Shown: piece by piece, positions 19,944 to 53,944 of the stretch
Numbering within the stretch: position 1 is the stretch's first letter
Layout: the number at the start of each line of letters is the position of its first letter
Assembly: GCA_009885955.1 (NCBI GenBank)
Contig: VFJS01000009.1
Span: forward strand, 1 to 64,000
Direction: 5' to 3'
Source of the DNA: Spirochaetia bacterium
GTDB lineage: Bacteria > Spirochaetota > UBA4802 > UBA5550
DNA length: 64,000 nucleotides
The notes under the pieces: model-generated
What the model was told of the DNA's origin: nothing
The model's database searches: none
Seen by the model: only the letters and a program-made list of their open reading frames with translations
Made by a program: the position numbers and the translations under genes

Positions 19944-21449
19944 TTAAAATAGATTGTTCAGGGAATTTGAGTAAAATTCAAGAAGGGGTTCCTTTTTTCT
20001 GTTTATCATGACGGAATTTTTCTTTAGAATTACAATTTTCCTTTTTTTAAGAATTTCAAGCCCTGCTTTTACCGTATTCCTTGCGATTCCGGTTTCAAGA
20101 AATTCCTCTTCAAAATCAACGAGCTCTTTTTTTCTGTCTTTTTTTTCCTGCTTGAGATTTATCTGGCTTTTAATTCCCCTTTCAAAGGCCCTTCCAAGGA
20201 CAATTCTTCTTTTTTTAATCCTGAGTTCTTTTCTTAACTGAATAATTTCCTTAACCAAATCATTCCTGTCAAAATTTTCTTTTTTAATATTCAGGATGGC
20301 CCTTGATGTTATGCTTACCGGTGTAACGGGAATTATTTCACCAATCTGGTTCATAAGCCTTGCTGCGAATTTTTTTATTACGGCCAGTCTCTTTTCACGG
20401 CCAATGTTCAGCAGCCGTGGGTTCTGTTTTTTCAGAAAGGCCGATACAGAGACAGGATCTCCGAAACTGACACTGGCATATCCGTGCTGTTTAAGCTTTC
20501 CTGAAATTAATCGAAAAATATTGGTTATAATGATCACGGGCGTATTAAGAAGAATTTTGAAGAGGGACAGCAGATGATCTTTAAAACCTGATTTAAATTT
20601 TTTATTTTTCCATTCTGATACCAGATTTTTGTCTTCCAACACCCAATCATAATTTATGCCCACCGGAATGAATACGATATCCCTTGTAAAATTTTTATCC
20701 TTTTTAATATTGATAATATAATCGATTATACCGACTTTCGGGTCCCGCAGTGAACCGTCACGGGTTAGTCCTCCTTCAGGGAAAATACCCTGGGTAATTC
20801 CGTTCAAACTGATCTGTTGAATATATTTTTCAAGGACAATGTGATAGAGCCTGTCTTTGAAATTTCTCCTTATAAAATAGGCTCCAAAGGACTTGAATAT
20901 GTATTCAAGGGGCCAAATCCTGGCCCATTCACCAACAGCATAGCTTACCGAAATTTTTCTGGCCAGCATGTATGAAACAATGATATAATCAATATTGCTC
21001 CTGTGGTTCATGACGAATACAACCACGTTGTCCCTGGGTATTTTTTTCAGCTTTTCGGCGTTTTCCCGGTCGATTACTACTTCGTAGACCATATTGAGAA
21101 AGATGCCGGCAATCCAGTATCCGAACTTGAAATAGGAAAGCATATTGAAAAAGGGGACAATCTCATCGATATATTTCTCCACCATTGACTGCGCTTCTTC
21201 AACCATGATGCCGTTCTCTTTTGAATAATCGATGATCGCCTGGTTAATTTCATTATCATTAAGGAGTTCATGCTTTACTATTACCTTGTTCATGAACTTA
21301 TACCTGTCGAGTTTTACCTTGTAGCCGCTTACCAGCTTTCTAAGCAATCTGCTCTGCTGGCGGAGCAGTACTCTCTTGATAAATGATCGGATTATCTCAT
21401 ACAGGAGGATCAGAAAGAGTATTTTGATTATGATAATGACTATATTCAT
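19944..21449 (-). CDS. glycerol-3-phosphate acyltransferase-like protein (PlsB/GPAT family)
   Basis: A 501-residue membrane-associated acyltransferase. All GPAT blocks are intact: N-H-R-S-N-I-D (His149 and Asp154 of the HX4D motif), G-A-Y-F-I-R-R (189-195), F-P-E-G-G-L-T-R (from 223) and I-P-V-G-I-N-Y-D. It should acylate glycerol-3-phosphate or a lysophosphatidate. An N-terminal hydrophobic helix (residues 2-20) anchors it. The C-terminal 120 residues are lysine-rich and helical, without a known domain. I start at the ATG at 21447-21449, since the open frame upstream overlaps aroQ and shows no family similarity. It contrasts with the degenerate acyltransferase domain fused to GpsA at 47988-50129. 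Confidence 0.8.
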   Translation of the reverse strand: MNIVIIIIKILFLILLYEIIRSFIKRVLLRQQSRLLRKLVSGYKVKLDRYKFMNKVIVKHELLNDNEINQAIIDYSKENGIMVEEAQSMVEKYIDEIVPFFNMLSYFKFGYWIAGIFLNMVYEVVIDRENAEKLKKIPRDNVVVFVMNHRSNIDYIIVSYMLARKISVSYAVGEWARIWPLEYIFKSFGAYFIRRNFKDRLYHIVLEKYIQQISLNGITQGIFPEGGLTRDGSLRDPKVGIIDYIINIKKDKNFTRDIVFIPVGINYDWVLEDKNLVSEWKNKKFKSGFKDHLLSLFKILLNTPVIIITNIFRLISGKLKQHGYASVSFGDPVSVSAFLKKQNPRLLNIGREKRLAVIKKFAARLMNQIGEIIPVTPVSITSRAILNIKKENFDRNDLVKEIIQLRKELRIKKRRIVLGRAFERGIKSQINLKQEKKDRKKELVDFEEEFLETGIARNTVKAGLEILKKRKIVILKKNSVMINRKKEPLLEFYSNSLNNLF

Positions 21450-21465
21450 ATTAACTATTCGGATT

Positions 21466-21909
21466 TCATTGATTCTTTTTGCTGTTAAGAAAATTTTCCA
21501 GGGCCATGAGCCCGAGAATATAAGAATAATATCCAAAACCTGTAATCTGCCCGATGCATACCGGAGCAATATGGGAATGCCGTCTGAACTCCTCCCGTGA
21601 ATGAATGTTTGAAAGATGAACTTCCACCGTCGGGACTGAAACAGATGAAATGGCGTCCCTGATTGCAATGGATGTGTGGGTATATGCTGCCGGATTTATC
21701 ACTATGCCGTCAGCTTTTTTATTATTATGGATGAAATCAATTATTTCACCTTCACTGTTTGACTGAAAAAAAGAGAGTTTGATATTTTTTTTACCGCCAT
21801 ATTCCATTATTATTCCGTCAATTTCAGCCAGTGTAAGGCTCCCATAGTAACCTGTCTCCCTTTCACCAAGGAGGTTGATATTCGGCCCGTTTATGATTAG
21901 TATTTCCAT
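21466..21909 (-). CDS. aroQ: type II 3-dehydroquinate dehydratase
   Basis: A 147-residue enzyme of the shikimate pathway converting 3-dehydroquinate to 3-dehydroshikimate. The start I-I-N-G-P-N-I-N-L-L-G-E-R-E and the catalytic tyrosine in E-T-G-Y-Y-G near residue 21 are typical, as are S-N-S-E-G-E, N-P-A-A-Y-T-H-T-S and V-E-V-H-L-S-N-I-H-S-R-E. Length equals the family norm. It forms dodecamers in the cytoplasm. The gene sits between cinA (117 bp upstream) and the GPAT-like gene (16 bp downstream). Another shikimate gene, aroE, lies at 44861. Confidence 0.93.
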   Translation of the reverse strand: MEILIINGPNINLLGERETGYYGSLTLAEIDGIIMEYGGKKNIKLSFFQSNSEGEIIDFIHNNKKADGIVINPAAYTHTSIAIRDAISSVSVPTVEVHLSNIHSREEFRRHSHIAPVCIGQITGFGYYSYILGLMALENFLNSKKNQ

Positions 21910-47023: not shown

Positions 47024-47983
47024 ATGAATAATAACAACATTAAATCACTTCTTATATCTATCAGGGAAACCATTAAAAAAGGGATAGATGGCGAATTTTC
47101 AGTTATTGAGATCAGGAATGAATATATAAAATTGTATACTATTTATGATAATATCATTAAACTTCAAAATATAAATCCAGTTGGTAGTTTCCTTAAGGGA
47201 ATTTTTTATAACCATAATATTAAAAATTTTTCTAAAATAACAGCTCTTTATATTTCAAAAAATGATACTGCAGATCAGATTTGTTATTTTGGAGATGTGC
47301 AACTTGGGAATATTATCAACAAATTTATAAATGAAAAAAAATCAGCAGGCGTACTCCCATTCCTCAAGCCTGAAAAAATTATTATAGATGATAATAACAA
47401 CCTGACCTATTTATTATACCTGCAAACAATAGAGTGCGCAGATGATGTTCAGCTGATTTCTGCAACAATAACATCTTCCCATTTTTTCAATGAAGAACAG
47501 TTCCTCTTTTTAAATAAAGTTATCTGCCTTATTTATAAAAAAATGTTACATATTTCATCGGGCGGTTTCATAGATTTCTTTGATATAATATCAAAGAAAA
47601 TAATTGAATATATCAATACCGAAGGGACTACATCAGTTCAATTATTTGTATTCCAGAGTTTAAAGGAAATTTTTCAGGATTCTGCTATTTCTGTTTATAA
47701 TGACATTAGCAGAAATATTCATAATACACTGAAAAAGTACTTCAGCAGAAATTCAAAAATATTCGTCCTTTCACTAACACAATATATTGTTCTGAGCCAG
47801 GAAGAAGTCTCACATGAAAATGTCAAGAAAAAGAATTCAAAAATAAATTTCACCTATAATGAACTTCTTATTCCTTATGAAACAATATTGATTGAAACAA
47901 AAGATTTTCAATCAATATATAAATTCTGGGATGAAGTTTTTATTATCAATAACTATATTTCTGCAGGCGATATCAGGCTTTGA
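47024..47983 (+). CDS. hypothetical protein (319 aa)
   Basis: Unrecognised soluble protein, AT-rich in codon use like its neighbours. The first 60 residues look helical. The middle (about residues 60-180) alternates beta and alpha, with T-A-L-Y-I-S-K-N-D and L-T-Y-L-L-Y-L-Q-T, and the last 100 residues resemble a degenerate nucleotide-cyclase or GAF-like pattern ending E-T-K-D-F-Q-S-I-Y-K-F-W-D. These are only impressions. It follows folC by 26 bp and is convergent with the gpsA fusion, 4 bp away. No Shine-Dalgarno is obvious. Confidence 0.65.
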   Translation: MNNNNIKSLLISIRETIKKGIDGEFSVIEIRNEYIKLYTIYDNIIKLQNINPVGSFLKGIFYNHNIKNFSKITALYISKNDTADQICYFGDVQLGNIINKFINEKKSAGVLPFLKPEKIIIDDNNNLTYLLYLQTIECADDVQLISATITSSHFFNEEQFLFLNKVICLIYKKMLHISSGGFIDFFDIISKKIIEYINTEGTTSVQLFVFQSLKEIFQDSAISVYNDISRNIHNTLKKYFSRNSKIFVLSLTQYIVLSQEEVSHENVKKKNSKINFTYNELLIPYETILIETKDFQSIYKFWDEVFIINNYISAGDIRL

Positions 47984-47987
47984 ATTA

Positions 47988-50129
47988 TTAAAGCATTTCT
48001 CCTTCTTCAATTTTAATTCTGAAATCATTATTTATTGAATCATTCTGCCATATTTCACCAATAACTTCAGATAGTTTATTTTCTGATTTATTATTCATTG
48101 TGTAATCTGAGAGATATATTGGATCTGAAAAATTAATTCTAATTTTACTGTCAAAATATTTCGAAATAGAGATTTTTTTTGCTTCACCTGCCACATTATT
48201 CTTCCGGTATAGTATTTCCACTGGAATCAAAACAATTTCAACAGTATTCTTGTAGATTGATTCAAGCAGAATATCAAAAAAATCATCCGGGACGATAATA
48301 TTTTTATCTATGACTTCTGGTTTATGTTGTGGAAAATAAAGGAGTGATACACCATGCTCTATCATAACAGAAATATATTCACAGAGCGATTCCCTGTAAA
48401 CGACATTTGATATCCTGTCAGCATCAACAATAAATCCGCCTGAAAGTTGCAGGTATAATTTATCCCAATCAGATGTAATCATGTCACGGCTTACAAAAAA
48501 TCTGGGAATGGGAAATCTGCTTTTCTTTATTGCATAAAGTGCGCAAACAAAGTCATGGTAATCTTTGAATGTGGAAACAAATATCATGCTTGCAGATTTA
48601 TTTATCTGATGTATTTTTTCAAAATTTCCTGAGATTTCAATCCTGTTTTCAGGGGATGAGAAGAATTTGATGAAGTTAATGATCTGTACATATTTAAGAA
48701 AAAACCAGCTCACAGTAGAATTATAGTTATCAATAATACTCTTAACATATAGTTGTGCCAGAGCTTCAATTGAAGATTTATAATTATCATCATCAAGATT
48801 GTTTAAAATATTTAACTCATTTTTTTTAATCTTTTTTAAGTTGTTTTTTAAATAATAGTTTGAGAATTGCAGAAGATTATCGACAACTTCTCCCTTTTTA
48901 TCCTTATATTTACTCTCTTCTCCATCAGGAATAAATTTTTGATAAGTCCTTTGTGTAATTATATTTACATAAGCATGACCTGTAACATTTTCAAGCCCCT
49001 TCTTTCTGTCAGAAATCTGTATTTTTGTCTCAAGGTATATCTGCTCAAATTTTTCTGGATTTTTAATCGTCTCGATCAGCAGTGACGGATTTTTTTTATT
49101 AAGGAGAACCTCATAGAGTGACCTGTATACCGGTATCGATATTTTGTGTTCTTCTGCAAGTTCAATTAATGGCTCTATTGCATATGCCCCTTCAGCAAGA
49201 TAATTTAATTTTTTACTCATCTTTTCAATTATCTCTTCAGGTTTGAATCTTAATATAAACCTGTCAATCAAGTCCAGGCTTTTTTTTCTCTGCATGATCT
49301 GCATAGATATCTCTCTGCCGAACCTTCTGTTTCTGCTATGATTGCTTAAAGCAGTAGCCACCAGGTCGCCAAGACCGGAAATATCAATGATAGTTTCCTG
49401 CCTCGCGTCAAATAGTTTAGCCAGTCTTAGCATCTCCTTTAATGCTTCAGATATAAGGGCTCCGGTAAGGTTGTCTCCACATTTGGGAAGGACTGAAATC
49501 ATTCCTGCTGCTATTGCCGCAGGATTTTTTAATATTCCTCCAACTTCTACACCGAGTATATCGTCGGTCTCCCTGCACTGCATATAATCATTTGATATTA
49601 ATTTTACGAATACTTTTCTTGAGAGATTAGATTTACATGCTACATTAAGGCAGGTGTGGTATTTATTTCTGACTTCTTCAGCATGGCTTGGACCATAAAT
49701 AGCCACGACTTTATTTTTAAATTTTGGAATACCTTTTTCTATTGTTTGAGAAATTGTAAGAGTTTTATGATTAACCTTGCAAAACCCCTTTGTCAAAAAA
49801 CCGAGATATGTTTTTTCAGAAATATATTTCCCTATCCTCAATGATATATCATGGACAACCTTTGACGGTGTTGCTATAATTATAGCATTTGAGTTAATTA
49901 CAGATTCTTTAATGCTTGATGTGGCAGTGATGTTGTTGGGCAGGAGAAAACCGGGAAGATATTGAAAATTTTCCTTCCGGTTATTAATTCCACTAACAAC
50001 GCTCTTTTCATAAGCCCATAGAATTACTTTCATTTCAGGATTATTTTCAGCTATGGCTATTGCAATGCATGTGCCCCAGGAACCTGCGCCAATAATCGAA
50101 ACTTCCTTGATGCTTCCAATACTTGTCAT
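47988..50129 (-). CDS. gpsA: glycerol-3-phosphate dehydrogenase (GpsA) fused to a degenerate GPAT-like domain
   Basis: A 713-residue fusion. Residues 8-345 are a complete NAD(P)-dependent GpsA: G-A-G-S-W-G-T (14-20), T-K-G (113-115), G-P-S-H-A, catalytic Lys201 in L-K-N-P, and S-G-L-G-D-L (251-256). After a basic linker, residues 510-690 align with PlsB-type acyltransferase but have lost catalysis: the HX4D box is Phe521...Asp526, the F-x-E-G-G box reads F-P-Q-H-K, and the F-I-R-R box reads F-I-V-D-A. L-I-P-V-E-I-L-Y still matches the fourth block. GpsA makes the very substrate GPAT uses, so the dead domain may bind or route glycerol-3-phosphate. It follows rpoD by 133 bp. Confidence 0.88.
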   Translation of the reverse strand: MTSIGSIKEVSIIGAGSWGTCIAIAIAENNPEMKVILWAYEKSVVSGINNRKENFQYLPGFLLPNNITATSSIKESVINSNAIIIATPSKVVHDISLRIGKYISEKTYLGFLTKGFCKVNHKTLTISQTIEKGIPKFKNKVVAIYGPSHAEEVRNKYHTCLNVACKSNLSRKVFVKLISNDYMQCRETDDILGVEVGGILKNPAAIAAGMISVLPKCGDNLTGALISEALKEMLRLAKLFDARQETIIDISGLGDLVATALSNHSRNRRFGREISMQIMQRKKSLDLIDRFILRFKPEEIIEKMSKKLNYLAEGAYAIEPLIELAEEHKISIPVYRSLYEVLLNKKNPSLLIETIKNPEKFEQIYLETKIQISDRKKGLENVTGHAYVNIITQRTYQKFIPDGEESKYKDKKGEVVDNLLQFSNYYLKNNLKKIKKNELNILNNLDDDNYKSSIEALAQLYVKSIIDNYNSTVSWFFLKYVQIINFIKFFSSPENRIEISGNFEKIHQINKSASMIFVSTFKDYHDFVCALYAIKKSRFPIPRFFVSRDMITSDWDKLYLQLSGGFIVDADRISNVVYRESLCEYISVMIEHGVSLLYFPQHKPEVIDKNIIVPDDFFDILLESIYKNTVEIVLIPVEILYRKNNVAGEAKKISISKYFDSKIRINFSDPIYLSDYTMNNKSENKLSEVIGEIWQNDSINNDFRIKIEEGEML

Positions 50130-50262: not shown

Positions 50263-52023
50263 CTACATATAATCGAGATAATCCTTTAATTTTCGAGCTC
50301 TAGTGGGGTGCCTGAGTCTTCTTAAGGCTTTTGCTTCAATTTGTCTTATCCGTTCACGGGTAACTTTGAAAACATAACCTACTTCTTCCAGGGTATGAGA
50401 ATATCCATCATCAAGTCCGAACCGCATCCTTATGACTTTCTGCTCCCTGGCAGGGAGTGTGCTCAGAACTGTTGTTATCTGTTCATTTAACAATCTATAA
50501 GCCGCTGTATTTGCAGGTGAATCTATTTCTTTATCTTCAATAAAATCACCAAGTAAAGAATCCTCTTCTTCTCCAACCGGAGTTTCAAGGGAGATTGGCT
50601 CACGCGCAACATTTTTTACAGCCTTAACCCTTGAAATGGGCCATCCAAGCCTGTCGGCCAGTTCTTCTGAGGCAGGTTCCCGACCGAATTCCTGTTGAAA
50701 AAGCCTGGTCTCCCTCATAACCTTATTTATTTGTTCTATCATATGGACAGGTACACGAATTGTTCGCGCCTGATCAGATATGGCCCTTGTAATTGCCTGC
50801 CGTATCCACCATGTGGCATATGTTGAAAATTTATATCCTTTTCTATACTCAAATTTGTCTACAGCTTTGATAAGACCAATATTGCCTTCCTGAATCAAAT
50901 CAAAAAAATGCATACCCCTGTTGGCATATTTTTTAGCAATAGAAACTACAAGCCTGAGATTAGCGTTGATAAGCTCTCTTTTTGCAATGGATATCTTTTT
51001 GTATCCTTCGGAAATCTGTTTACCCCATCTCATAATATCGTCAGCTGATGCTCCAGCCTCCTGCTCAATGCGTCGAATTTTCCGCTCATTATTCCTGATA
51101 TCTTTAACTATATTCAGCAGATCTTCCTTGTTTGTCAATTCCAGCTTTTTTAATATGTCACGAATATCCTCGCCCTTTTCAACTTTCCTGGCGAAATGTT
51201 TAAGCTCCTTAAGATCAAGACCGTATTTTTCCTGAACAAGATCAAAAAAGAAATGAGTATCTTTAATTCTGTTTACCATTGATCTTATTTTACTGGACAG
51301 TTTTGAAATCTCGTTTTCATTTACGCCAATCTCTTCAATGGCCTTTCTGATTTTATCCTTTGATTCCTTTTGTTTGGCAAGATAGTCTTTGGCAGCATCA
51401 GATTCCATGTCGACTTTTTTCAACTTACTGCTCAACTTTAAAACCTTGGTATCTTCCTCGATAATAATTTTCATCTTCTCATTATACTTTTTTTCGAGGG
51501 AGTCCATATCTACAGAAGAGAAATAATACATTTTGTTTACTTTTAAAACTTCAGTAAGCTTAATTTTACCGCTTTTTACTTTATTATGGTTTTTGATGAA
51601 TTCATTGATTAATAACGTAGAATCCAGGACAGCTTTTTCAATTAAAATCTCGCCATCCTCTATACGTTTTGCCAGGTTTACCTCCTGATCGCCTGAAAGA
51701 AGAGATACCCGGCCGATTTCACGGAGATATAGTCTTATAGGATCATCAATAGCATTGCTGTCGCCTGCTGCCGCAGCTTTTTTTGATGTGGCACCTTTTT
51801 TAGCTTTTACAACGCCGCTTACTTTTTTTGTGGCTTCTTCGACAACATCAATTCCCATCTGATTAAGCAGAATGAATATTTCATCGATTTTTTCGGAATT
51901 CAGTAGTTTATCAGGTATTATATCATTTATTTCATCATAGGTAACTTCATGGTTTAATTTTCCAATTTCGATTAACTTTTTAACTTCAGCAATATTTTCT
52001 AAAACTAAGTCATTCTTGCTCAT
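50263..52023 (-). CDS. rpoD: RNA polymerase primary sigma factor RpoD
   Basis: A 586-residue sigma-70. Region 1.1 is short and followed by an Ala/Lys-rich linker. Region 1.2 begins [12 protein letters not shown] near residue 93. A non-conserved insert of about 200 residues, rich in Lys and Glu, precedes region 2 ([12 protein letters not shown]). Region 2.4 [11 protein letters not shown] and region 4.2 with [10 protein letters not shown] are canonical, so the housekeeping -35/-10 should be TTGACA/TATAAT. It lies 79 bp after dnaG, the common macromolecular-synthesis arrangement. Confidence 0.95.
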
Positions 52024-52102: not shown

Positions 52103-53875
52103 TTATTGATAGTAAACAAAATTGTTAAGCTTCTCCTTTTCCCTTCTCAGTATTTCAATTTCTGTTAAATAGTTATTGTCTGGGCCTGAAGAATTTTTGA
52201 TCTTATCCGCATATTTATTTATTTTTGCGTCAATTTCATGAAGTTTTAATTTTATATATATTTCGGTATATGCTTTTTCAGGATTTTCAGTAATAAACCC
52301 TTCAATTAATGATTTATTTAAAAATTCCATTTCGAAATCATTCTCAAAAAAGTCAAACATTTTATCAACAGAAAAAATCTGATTCGAATAGTAGATCTCT
52401 GCGATTTTCATGAAAATATTTCTTGTTATAACATCTGAAATATCATGAGGTGAAAAATCAACAGCAGCTCTTTCTATAAGCTCGGGATAGTTACAGATCA
52501 ACTTCAACAGATCCCTATGTATTCTCGTTACCGGGTCGGTATATATTTCTTTCGTGCTGCCGGTCTTTTTTACGCTCCCCAATGCCCCATTTTTAACATA
52601 ATTAAAAAAATCCTTTCTGACAGAATTTTCATCAATTTTGAGCAACGAGCTTATCTTGTTAATATAAATACTTTTTTCTGATTCAAGTTCAATTTTCATA
52701 ATGACTGAAAAAAGTTTGATCATTGTATTAATCCGATCTTTTATACCGAATTCACCAATTATCCGTTTGATCTGAAAATCTACCGGTTTAACAGCAGAAT
52801 CGACTATAACCATGAATTCTCTCAGGGATTTTTTTAACAAAAAGTCAAAAGGATCTCCGTCCGGCAGCATGGCAACTCTAACTTCAACATTTATTTTGCT
52901 GAAAATTTCAAGTGACTTTAGTGCTGCTTCAAACCCTGCTGAATCTGAGTCAAATAAAACAACAGCCTCACTGCAATATCTGGAAATGATCTTTGCATGA
53001 TTCTCAGTAAAAGCTGTGCCAAGGGATGCAACAACATTCATCAGGCCTGCCTGATGACAGGCTATTACATCAAAATATCCCTCTACAACTATGACCCTGT
53101 TTAATTCTTTGATTGAGGCTGATGCCATATTCAGCCCATAGAGGATCTCCCGTTTTCTAAAAATTTCAGACTCAGGGGAATTTATATACTTTGCCATAGG
53201 TTCGGTTGGAAGATCAGACAGCCTCCTTGCTCCGAAACCCAGAGTCCTTTCGTTGATGTCAATAATCGGGAACATTATCCTGTTTCTGAATCTGTCATAA
53301 TAATGAGACCTGTTTTTATCACTGGAGCTCAAAAGACCTATTTTTTCACCAATATGTAAATCCACACTGTTTTTTTTAAGGCCCCCGGTGAGTTTGTCCC
53401 ATGAATCCGGAGCGAAGCCAATATTAAAAAGTTCTATTGAACCTTCTTTAATTCCTCTGTGAATCAGATACTCCCTCCCTATTCTTCCTTCAGATGAATT
53501 CAGATATTTACAGAAAAAATTCTGAGCAAATCTATTAATTCTGTATCCCTGTTCGAAAATAGGATTTTTTTCAGTTTCAATATTAGTAATTTCTACTCCG
53601 GCAAAACCTGCAAGATATTTTACACTTTCAAAAAAATTAAGTCTTTCAACTTTTGATATAAAGGTAAAAATGTTCCCTCCTGTTTGGCATCCAAAACAGT
53701 GAAAAATCTGCTTTTCATGTGATACAGTAAAAGATGGGGTCTTTTCCTTGTGGAATGGGCATAATCCAATATAATTTTTCCCCTTTTTTTTTAATGTGGG
53801 AACAAATTTTTTAATAATCTCTAAAATATCAGTACGTTCTCTGATAAGATCAATGGTTTCTCTTGGTATTAACAA
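52103..53875 (-). CDS. dnaG: DNA primase DnaG
   Basis: About 590 residues. The N-terminal CHC2 zinc finger has Cys39, His42, Cys60 and Cys63. The family opening L-I-P-R-E-T-I-D-L-I-R, the RNA polymerase domain, and TOPRIM with V-V-E-G-Y-F-D-V and V-L-F-D-S-D-S-A-G are present, with a helical C-terminal helicase-binding part. It synthesises replication primers. I place the start at the TTG at 53873-53875, one codon before the conserved opening. The frame stays open to another TTG at 53942-53944 with GAGG upstream, which would add 23 residues unlike the family; the start is therefore uncertain. Confidence 0.9.
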   Translation of the reverse strand: MLIPRETIDLIRERTDILEIIKKFVPTLKKKGKNYIGLCPFHKEKTPSFTVSHEKQIFHCFGCQTGGNIFTFISKVERLNFFESVKYLAGFAGVEITNIETEKNPIFEQGYRINRFAQNFFCKYLNSSEGRIGREYLIHRGIKEGSIELFNIGFAPDSWDKLTGGLKKNSVDLHIGEKIGLLSSSDKNRSHYYDRFRNRIMFPIIDINERTLGFGARRLSDLPTEPMAKYINSPESEIFRKREILYGLNMASASIKELNRVIVVEGYFDVIACHQAGLMNVVASLGTAFTENHAKIISRYCSEAVVLFDSDSAGFEAALKSLEIFSKINVEVRVAMLPDGDPFDFLLKKSLREFMVIVDSAVKPVDFQIKRIIGEFGIKDRINTMIKLFSVIMKIELESEKSIYINKISSLLKIDENSVRKDFFNYVKNGALGSVKKTGSTKEIYTDPVTRIHRDLLKLICNYPELIERAAVDFSPHDISDVITRNIFMKIAEIYYSNQIFSVDKMFDFFENDFEMEFLNKSLIEGFITENPEKAYTEIYIKLKLHEIDAKINKYADKIKNSSGPDNNYLTEIEILRREKEKLNNFVYYQ

Positions 53876-53944
53876 TTTTTTCTCATATTCAAATTTGTAG
53901 TAAAATAAACACACAAGCAAAATAGTAGATGTTTGATTATTCAA

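What the first reader, a model, noticed from the sequence alone, without database searches (positions are those of the whole stretch)
47988..50129. GpsA fused to a catalytically dead GPAT-like domain
The C-terminal 200 residues align along all blocks with PlsB-type acyltransferase, yet the catalytic His is Phe521 and the E-G-G block is Q-H-K. GpsA makes glycerol-3-phosphate, the GPAT substrate, and a motif-complete GPAT-like enzyme is encoded at 19944-21449. The dead domain could be a substrate sensor, a scaffold that recruits the active enzyme, or an allosteric regulator of phospholipid entry.
Basis: partly seen in the sequence, partly recalled or inferred. Interest (0 to 1): 0.7.

Follow-up and report, generated by a model that had tools for sequence, protein, structure and literature searches.

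The report
GpsA carrying a conserved dead acyltransferase
In one lineage of uncultured spirochaetes the only enzyme that makes glycerol-3-phosphate carries, at its end, the inactivated but still selectively maintained remains of the enzyme that would use that product, whereas the cultured spirochaete Leptonema illini and its relatives carry the same fusion with both halves apparently intact, which suggests that joining these two first steps of membrane-lipid synthesis mattered even after one half stopped working.

Summary
ORF 47988-50129(-) is a 713-aa GpsA (residues 10-352, all catalytic residues present) fused to a GPAT/PlsB-fold domain (378-713) with Phe521 for the catalytic His and Q601-H-K for E-G-G; the model aligns to human GPAT1 at Z 22. 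This is not recent decay. The fusion occurs in 38 of 46 genomes of the order; the His column is non-His in 36 of 38 and block III is lost in all. It is the only GpsA wherever checked, with a separate motif-complete PlsB in nearly all genomes. New here: family f34 of the same phylum (including, by exact scaffold length, Leptonema illini) has the same fusion with H-X4-D and E-G-T-R intact in 16/16. Both halves group dead with intact fusions (98; 100/98), so one fusion event is the simplest reading. Rates are mirror images: GpsA conserved and GPAT drifting in the dead group, the reverse in the intact group. The dead half is still under purifying selection (dN/dS 0.10-0.13 in two families, 0.32-0.37 in one). 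Best reading: a pseudo-acyltransferase kept for a non-catalytic job, probably docking GpsA at the membrane or PlsB. That job is inferred, not shown.

The parts
47988..50129 (-). gpsA-pseudoGPAT fusion gene, 713 aa
49050..50129 (-). GpsA domain (residues 1-360); K114, K201, D255, S265, R266, N267, E313 and GxGxxG intact
   Evidence: Pfam; invariant columns; residue table; structure Z 40.5 to 3k96
48660..48998 (-). helical N-terminal part of the GPAT-like region (residues 378-490), including most of a hydrophobic helix 471-491 before the core
   Evidence: DSSP of models; alignment to GPAT1 8e4y residues 121-512; hydrophobicity
47991..48659 (-). GPAT-like acyltransferase core (residues 491-713)
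48567..48569 (-). Phe521 codon TTC at the catalytic His position of H-X4-D (Asp526 kept)
48501..48503 (-). Arg543, invariant in dead (38/38) and intact (16/16) fusions, mostly His in stand-alone PlsB
48321..48329 (-). Q601-H602-K603 in place of E-G-G/T (block III)
50263..52023 (-). rpoD, directly upstream of the fusion here and in most loci of the order
52103..53944 (-). dnaG, upstream of rpoD; order dnaG-rpoD-fusion also in L031-L033
19944..21668 (-). separate PlsB-like protein (HRSNID, EGGLT; 574 aa), a paralogue group apart from full-length PlsB

Best explanation
Shown: the protein is the cell's only GpsA, with a complete catalytic set, fused to a GPAT/PlsB-fold domain that has lost the catalytic His, the block II Arg and the block III G3P-binding arginines. 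Dead and intact fusions group together in both halves, so they most likely descend from one GpsA-GPAT fusion that still has intact motifs in the Leptonema family. In the window's order acylation can be done by a separate PlsB in most genomes, and the fused GPAT half became a pseudoenzyme that selection still maintains. Inferred: the ancestor was bifunctional and handed glycerol-3-phosphate from the GpsA half to the GPAT half. After catalysis was lost the domain kept its non-catalytic work, most likely holding GpsA at the membrane surface and/or against the true PlsB, so that glycerol-3-phosphate is released where it is consumed.
For: Fold. Family-wide loss of the active site: His column F9 A8 Y6 G3 L3 N2 H2 and five single others in 38, block III lost. 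GpsA residues intact in 22/22; only GpsA in the genome. Separate PlsB with H-X4-D and EGG/T-R. Intact fusion in 16 f34 genomes, with G164 C1 = 4,325,094 bp, the exact length of the largest Leptonema illini scaffold. Common descent: dead+intact 98 on the GpsA half, 100/98 on the GPAT half; dead domain + stand-alone PlsB rejected p=0.012. Ten fusion-specific residues kept in dead and intact alike. Selection: dN/dS of the dead half 0.10-0.13 (f7, f4), 0.32-0.37 (f5). Hydrophobic helix before the core kept. An opposite-order fusion GPAT-GpsA-like in three families shows that joining these two functions recurs.
Against: No interaction, localisation or activity was measured. The hydrophobic helix is only moderately hydrophobic in the window protein (KD 1.12) and no clear membrane anchor is predicted. 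The dead half diverges fast (median identity 27% against 57% for GpsA), and several lineages, the window's included, have lost the last ~60 residues, which fits slow erosion. G028 has the dead fusion but no PlsB hit, so the partner is not demonstrably always present.
Confidence: 0.5

Rival explanations
1. Structural passenger: once fused, GpsA came to depend on the domain for folding or stability; it has no role in organising lipid synthesis and is slowly eroding.
For: Fast divergence of the dead half, C-terminal truncations in several lineages, relaxed dN/dS 0.32-0.37 in f5.
Against: dN/dS 0.10-0.13 in f7 and f4, no in-frame stops in about 340 codons in nearly all members, fusion-specific residues kept in both dead and intact groups; f3 of the same order lives with an unfused GpsA.
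Confidence: 0.27
2. Allosteric sensor: the domain still binds an acyl donor, lysophosphatidic acid or another lipid signal and tunes GpsA activity.
For: Block II and P-R positions stay conserved (G564, G565, P542, R543) although catalytic residues vary; PlsB itself is under allosteric control in E. coli (PMC7439487).
Against: The block II Arg (CoA contact in GPAT1) and the motif III Arg pair (G3P contact) described in PMC11011501 are lost; the residue at the old active site varies freely.
Confidence: 0.17
3. The domain is still an acyltransferase using other residues, or is active in some members (L010, L016 have H-X4-D).
For: HKNIND and HKNVND in two members of the window's family; Asp kept in 31/38.
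Against: Those two lack block III and the block II Arg; they sit inside a clade with F and Y at that site, and Y to H is one base change.
Confidence: 0.04
4. Chance similarity or assembly artefact.
For: Own Pfam E only 0.21.
Against: Fusion in 38 genomes, profile and structure matches, two trees.
Confidence: 0.01

Closest known systems
GpsA, NAD(P)-dependent glycerol-3-phosphate dehydrogenase (PF01210/PF07479)
   Same: whole fold and all catalytic residues
   Different: carries a C-terminal GPAT-like domain of roughly 300-440 residues
PlsB / GPAT (TIGR03703, PF01553; human GPAT1 8e4y)
   Same: fold of helical part plus acyltransferase core, Asp of H-X4-D, Pro of block IV
   Different: catalytic His, block II Arg and block III lost; Pfam GPAT_C not detected; fused behind GpsA
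Intact GpsA-GPAT fusion of family f34 (Leptonema illini, L162), found here
   Same: same domain order, ten fusion-specific residues, one clade in both halves
   Different: H-X4-D and EGTR intact; GpsA half evolves fast and a second, canonical GpsA is present in nearly all
Reverse fusion GPAT-GpsA-like (~690 aa; L177-L184), found here
   Same: joins the same two functions in one chain
   Different: opposite order, GPAT motifs intact, GpsA part has lost GxGxxG and the S-R-N Asn
Dunaliella GPDH (6iuy), a GPDH joined to another enzyme domain (from memory: a phosphatase)
   Same: GPDH joined to a further enzyme domain (the structure match of the GPDH part)
   Different: different partner, not a pseudoenzyme

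Membership tests
GpsA (glycerol-3-phosphate dehydrogenase) | both Pfam domains over cut-off | tested here: met
GpsA (glycerol-3-phosphate dehydrogenase) | GxGxxG, catalytic Lys pair, Asp, S-R-N, Glu | tested here: met
   22/22 dead fusions
GpsA (glycerol-3-phosphate dehydrogenase) | DHAP reduction | not testable with these tools
   needs an assay
PlsB/GPAT acyltransferase | GPAT fold | tested here: met
   Z 22.2, 279 residues, rmsd 3.7 to 8e4y
PlsB/GPAT acyltransferase | H-X4-D with catalytic His | tested here: not met
   Phe521; non-His in 36/38
PlsB/GPAT acyltransferase | block III E-G-G/T-R | tested here: not met
   Q-H-K-P in the window protein; no dead-fusion member keeps it
PlsB/GPAT acyltransferase | block II Arg | tested here: not met
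   (columns 564-570: GGFIVDA in the window protein)
PlsB/GPAT acyltransferase | over the curated Pfam cut-off | tested here: not met
   window protein 11.9 bits against 23
Pseudoenzyme under selection | catalytic residues lost while dN/dS stays well below 1 | tested here: met
   measured for close pairs of f7, f4, f5, not for the window's own saturated pair
Pseudoenzyme under selection | demonstrated non-catalytic role | not testable with these tools
   needs experiment

The most novel reading that the evidence does not exclude
A single GpsA-GPAT fusion met opposite fates in two spirochaete lineages: in one the GPAT half died and became a docking module that couples GpsA to the separate PlsB, in the other the GPAT half stayed alive and the GpsA half relaxed because another GpsA took over; with the reverse-order fusion this makes physical coupling of G3P synthesis and acylation a recurrent, selected theme in the phylum.
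Probability: 0.4. Interest if true: 0.82.

Novelty: new variant of a known kind. Interest (0 to 1): 0.68.

Why it matters
GpsA and PlsB are textbook separate enzymes at the entry to membrane lipid synthesis, and how their activities are matched is an open question. A natural fusion with an intact form in a cultured, named organism (Leptonema illini) and a dead but maintained form in another lineage makes it directly testable whether the two steps are physically coupled, and what a dead GPAT domain is good for.

Tried and rejected
Genome-contig scan with the single protein found nothing; with the alignment it found four fusion loci, all spirochaete MAGs. Recent decay of one gene: rejected by the order-wide pattern. 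Origin of the dead domain from the genome's own PlsB line: rejected (AU p 0.012). I first took the f34 fusion for the only GPAT of genomes without PlsY or PlsB; dropped, because the reverse fusion also carries a motif-complete GPAT. A longer GpsA C-domain shared by both fusions is not proof of one fusion event: unfused Treponema-type GpsA appear to have a similar length. Literature searches in the held PMC library found no GpsA-GPAT fusion or acyltransferase pseudoenzyme of this kind; subscription papers are not covered. dN/dS for the window and its nearest relative is saturated and was not used.

Full report
Observation. The minus-strand ORF 47988-50129 encodes 713 aa without a break. Residues 10-352 are GpsA by Pfam with strong scores; the GPAT match of the window protein alone is not significant (E 0.21). 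The genome has 4.77 Mb and one GpsA, this one.

Is the GPAT resemblance real? A profile of 30 relatives finds exactly one solved protein up to E 10, a glycerol-3-phosphate acyltransferase (9vuq_E, E 3.2e-6). Sixteen of 30 relatives hit the NCBIfam plsB model, best 1.3e-13. AlphaFold models of the whole protein (mean pLDDT 83.9) and of residues 372-713 alone (84.0, pTM 0.85) were made from that alignment. The domain aligns to human GPAT1 8e4y over 279 residues, Z 22.2, rmsd 3.7; next come squash GPAT (Z 15) and Thermotoga PlsC (Z 14). The match covers residues 378-713, so helical part and core both belong to the GPAT fold.

Distribution. In the order, the GPAT-like domain profile finds fusions (at E 1e-15 or better) in 38 of 46 genomes, families f1, f2, f4-f7; f3 has an unfused ordinary GpsA. 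Named records among the full-length matches are Spirochaetes/Spirochaetia MAGs. rpoD lies directly upstream in most loci, dnaG upstream of rpoD where the flank reaches. Across 393 genomes of the phylum, the only other carriers at E 1e-15 are 16 genomes of family f34. One f34 genome, G164, has a first contig of 4,325,094 bp, exactly the largest scaffold reported for Leptonema illini 3055T (PMC3746420).

State of the active site. In 38 dead fusions the His column holds F 9, A 8, Y 6, G 3, L 3, N 2, H 2 and one each of W, C, R, V, S; Asp is kept in 31; block III is lost in all; the block II Arg is lost. The two with His (L010, L016) lack the other blocks. In 16 of 16 f34 fusions the motifs are H-X4-D, V-D-R and E-G-T-R. 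The full-length stand-alone PlsB proteins of the order have H-X4-D and E-G-G/T-R in 20 of 20. In GPAT1, motif I is catalytic, motif II contacts CoA and the motif III arginines bind G3P (PMC11011501), so the window's domain should neither catalyse nor bind G3P in the usual way.

Common descent. On the GpsA half the dead and intact fusions form one side of a branch (98), inside a larger group with Treponema-type GpsA, away from the canonical GpsA of f34 and f3. On the GPAT half, with the catalytic columns left out, dead plus intact fusions have support 100/98, and grouping the dead domain with the stand-alone PlsB is rejected (p 0.012). Ten positions are conserved in dead and intact fusions but not in PlsB: G384, E438, D467, G501, Y517 (F in the window protein), R543, E580, L597, E631, S674. 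One fusion event is the simplest reading; transfer between the lineages is not excluded, and the branches are long.

Mirror-image rates. Median identity within the dead group is 57% for GpsA and 27% for GPAT; within the intact group 34% and 56%. Of 14 f34 genomes checked, all but G124 also have a canonical GpsA, so the fused GpsA half is free to drift, although its catalytic residues are mostly kept. The dead group has a separate PlsB in nearly all genomes checked, so its GPAT half is free to drift.

Is the dead half still working? Nei-Gojobori dN/dS (own script) for close pairs: f7 0.10-0.13, f4 0.11, f5 0.32-0.37, with GpsA halves at 0.05-0.14. Values far below 1 mean selection for the protein sequence. 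They do not say for what; folding support for GpsA would also give them. The distances of most pairs are large, so the figures are approximate, and the window's own pair is saturated.

Mechanism. The product of GpsA is the substrate of GPAT. A fused pair can pass it on; I infer that the ancestor did. In the window's order the maintained but inactive domain most likely gives location or partner binding: the GPAT fold is membrane-associated in its known members (own knowledge), the helix before the core (471-491) keeps a hydrophobic character, and fusion-specific residues are kept without catalysis. No direct evidence for a contact with PlsB or the membrane was obtained.

Reverse fusion. In families f11, f22 and f34 (39 of 296 genomes) a ~690-aa protein has a GPAT domain first and a GpsA-like domain second. 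In the eight f34 examples read here the GPAT motifs are complete, while the GpsA part has GxGxxG broken, the S-R-N Asn changed and the Glu missing. It is the mirror of the window's protein.

Verdict. Observation confirmed; interpretation partly supported and extended. New variant of a known kind: a pathway enzyme fused to the pseudoenzyme form of its successor.

Noticed in passing
L177-L185 (family f34; also families f11, f22): Reverse-order fusion of about 690 aa: motif-complete plastid-type GPAT followed by a degraded GpsA-like domain, in 39 of 296 genomes of the phylum.
   Followed up: partly
window 19944-21668 (-): Second PlsB-like protein with HRSNID and EGGLT; a separate paralogue group (505-583 aa) beside full-length PlsB in several genomes, the only stand-alone PlsB-like one found in G006.
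   Followed up: partly
window 47024-47983 (+): 319-aa protein without Pfam match, convergent with the fusion and 4 bases from its end; relatives (22-32% identity) sit near the fusion in many loci.
   Followed up: no
G028: Genome 96% complete with the dead fusion but no PlsB (E 1e-5) or PlsY hit; its first acyltransferase is unclear.
   Followed up: no
L138 (G016), L014 (G005), L169/L185 (G195): Broken or frameshifted copies: fusion cut after the GpsA part near a contig end, a TGA inside, and split frames; sequencing error and real decay were not told apart.
   Followed up: no
G014, G033: No GpsA hit at all in two genomes of the order (about 90% complete).
   Followed up: no
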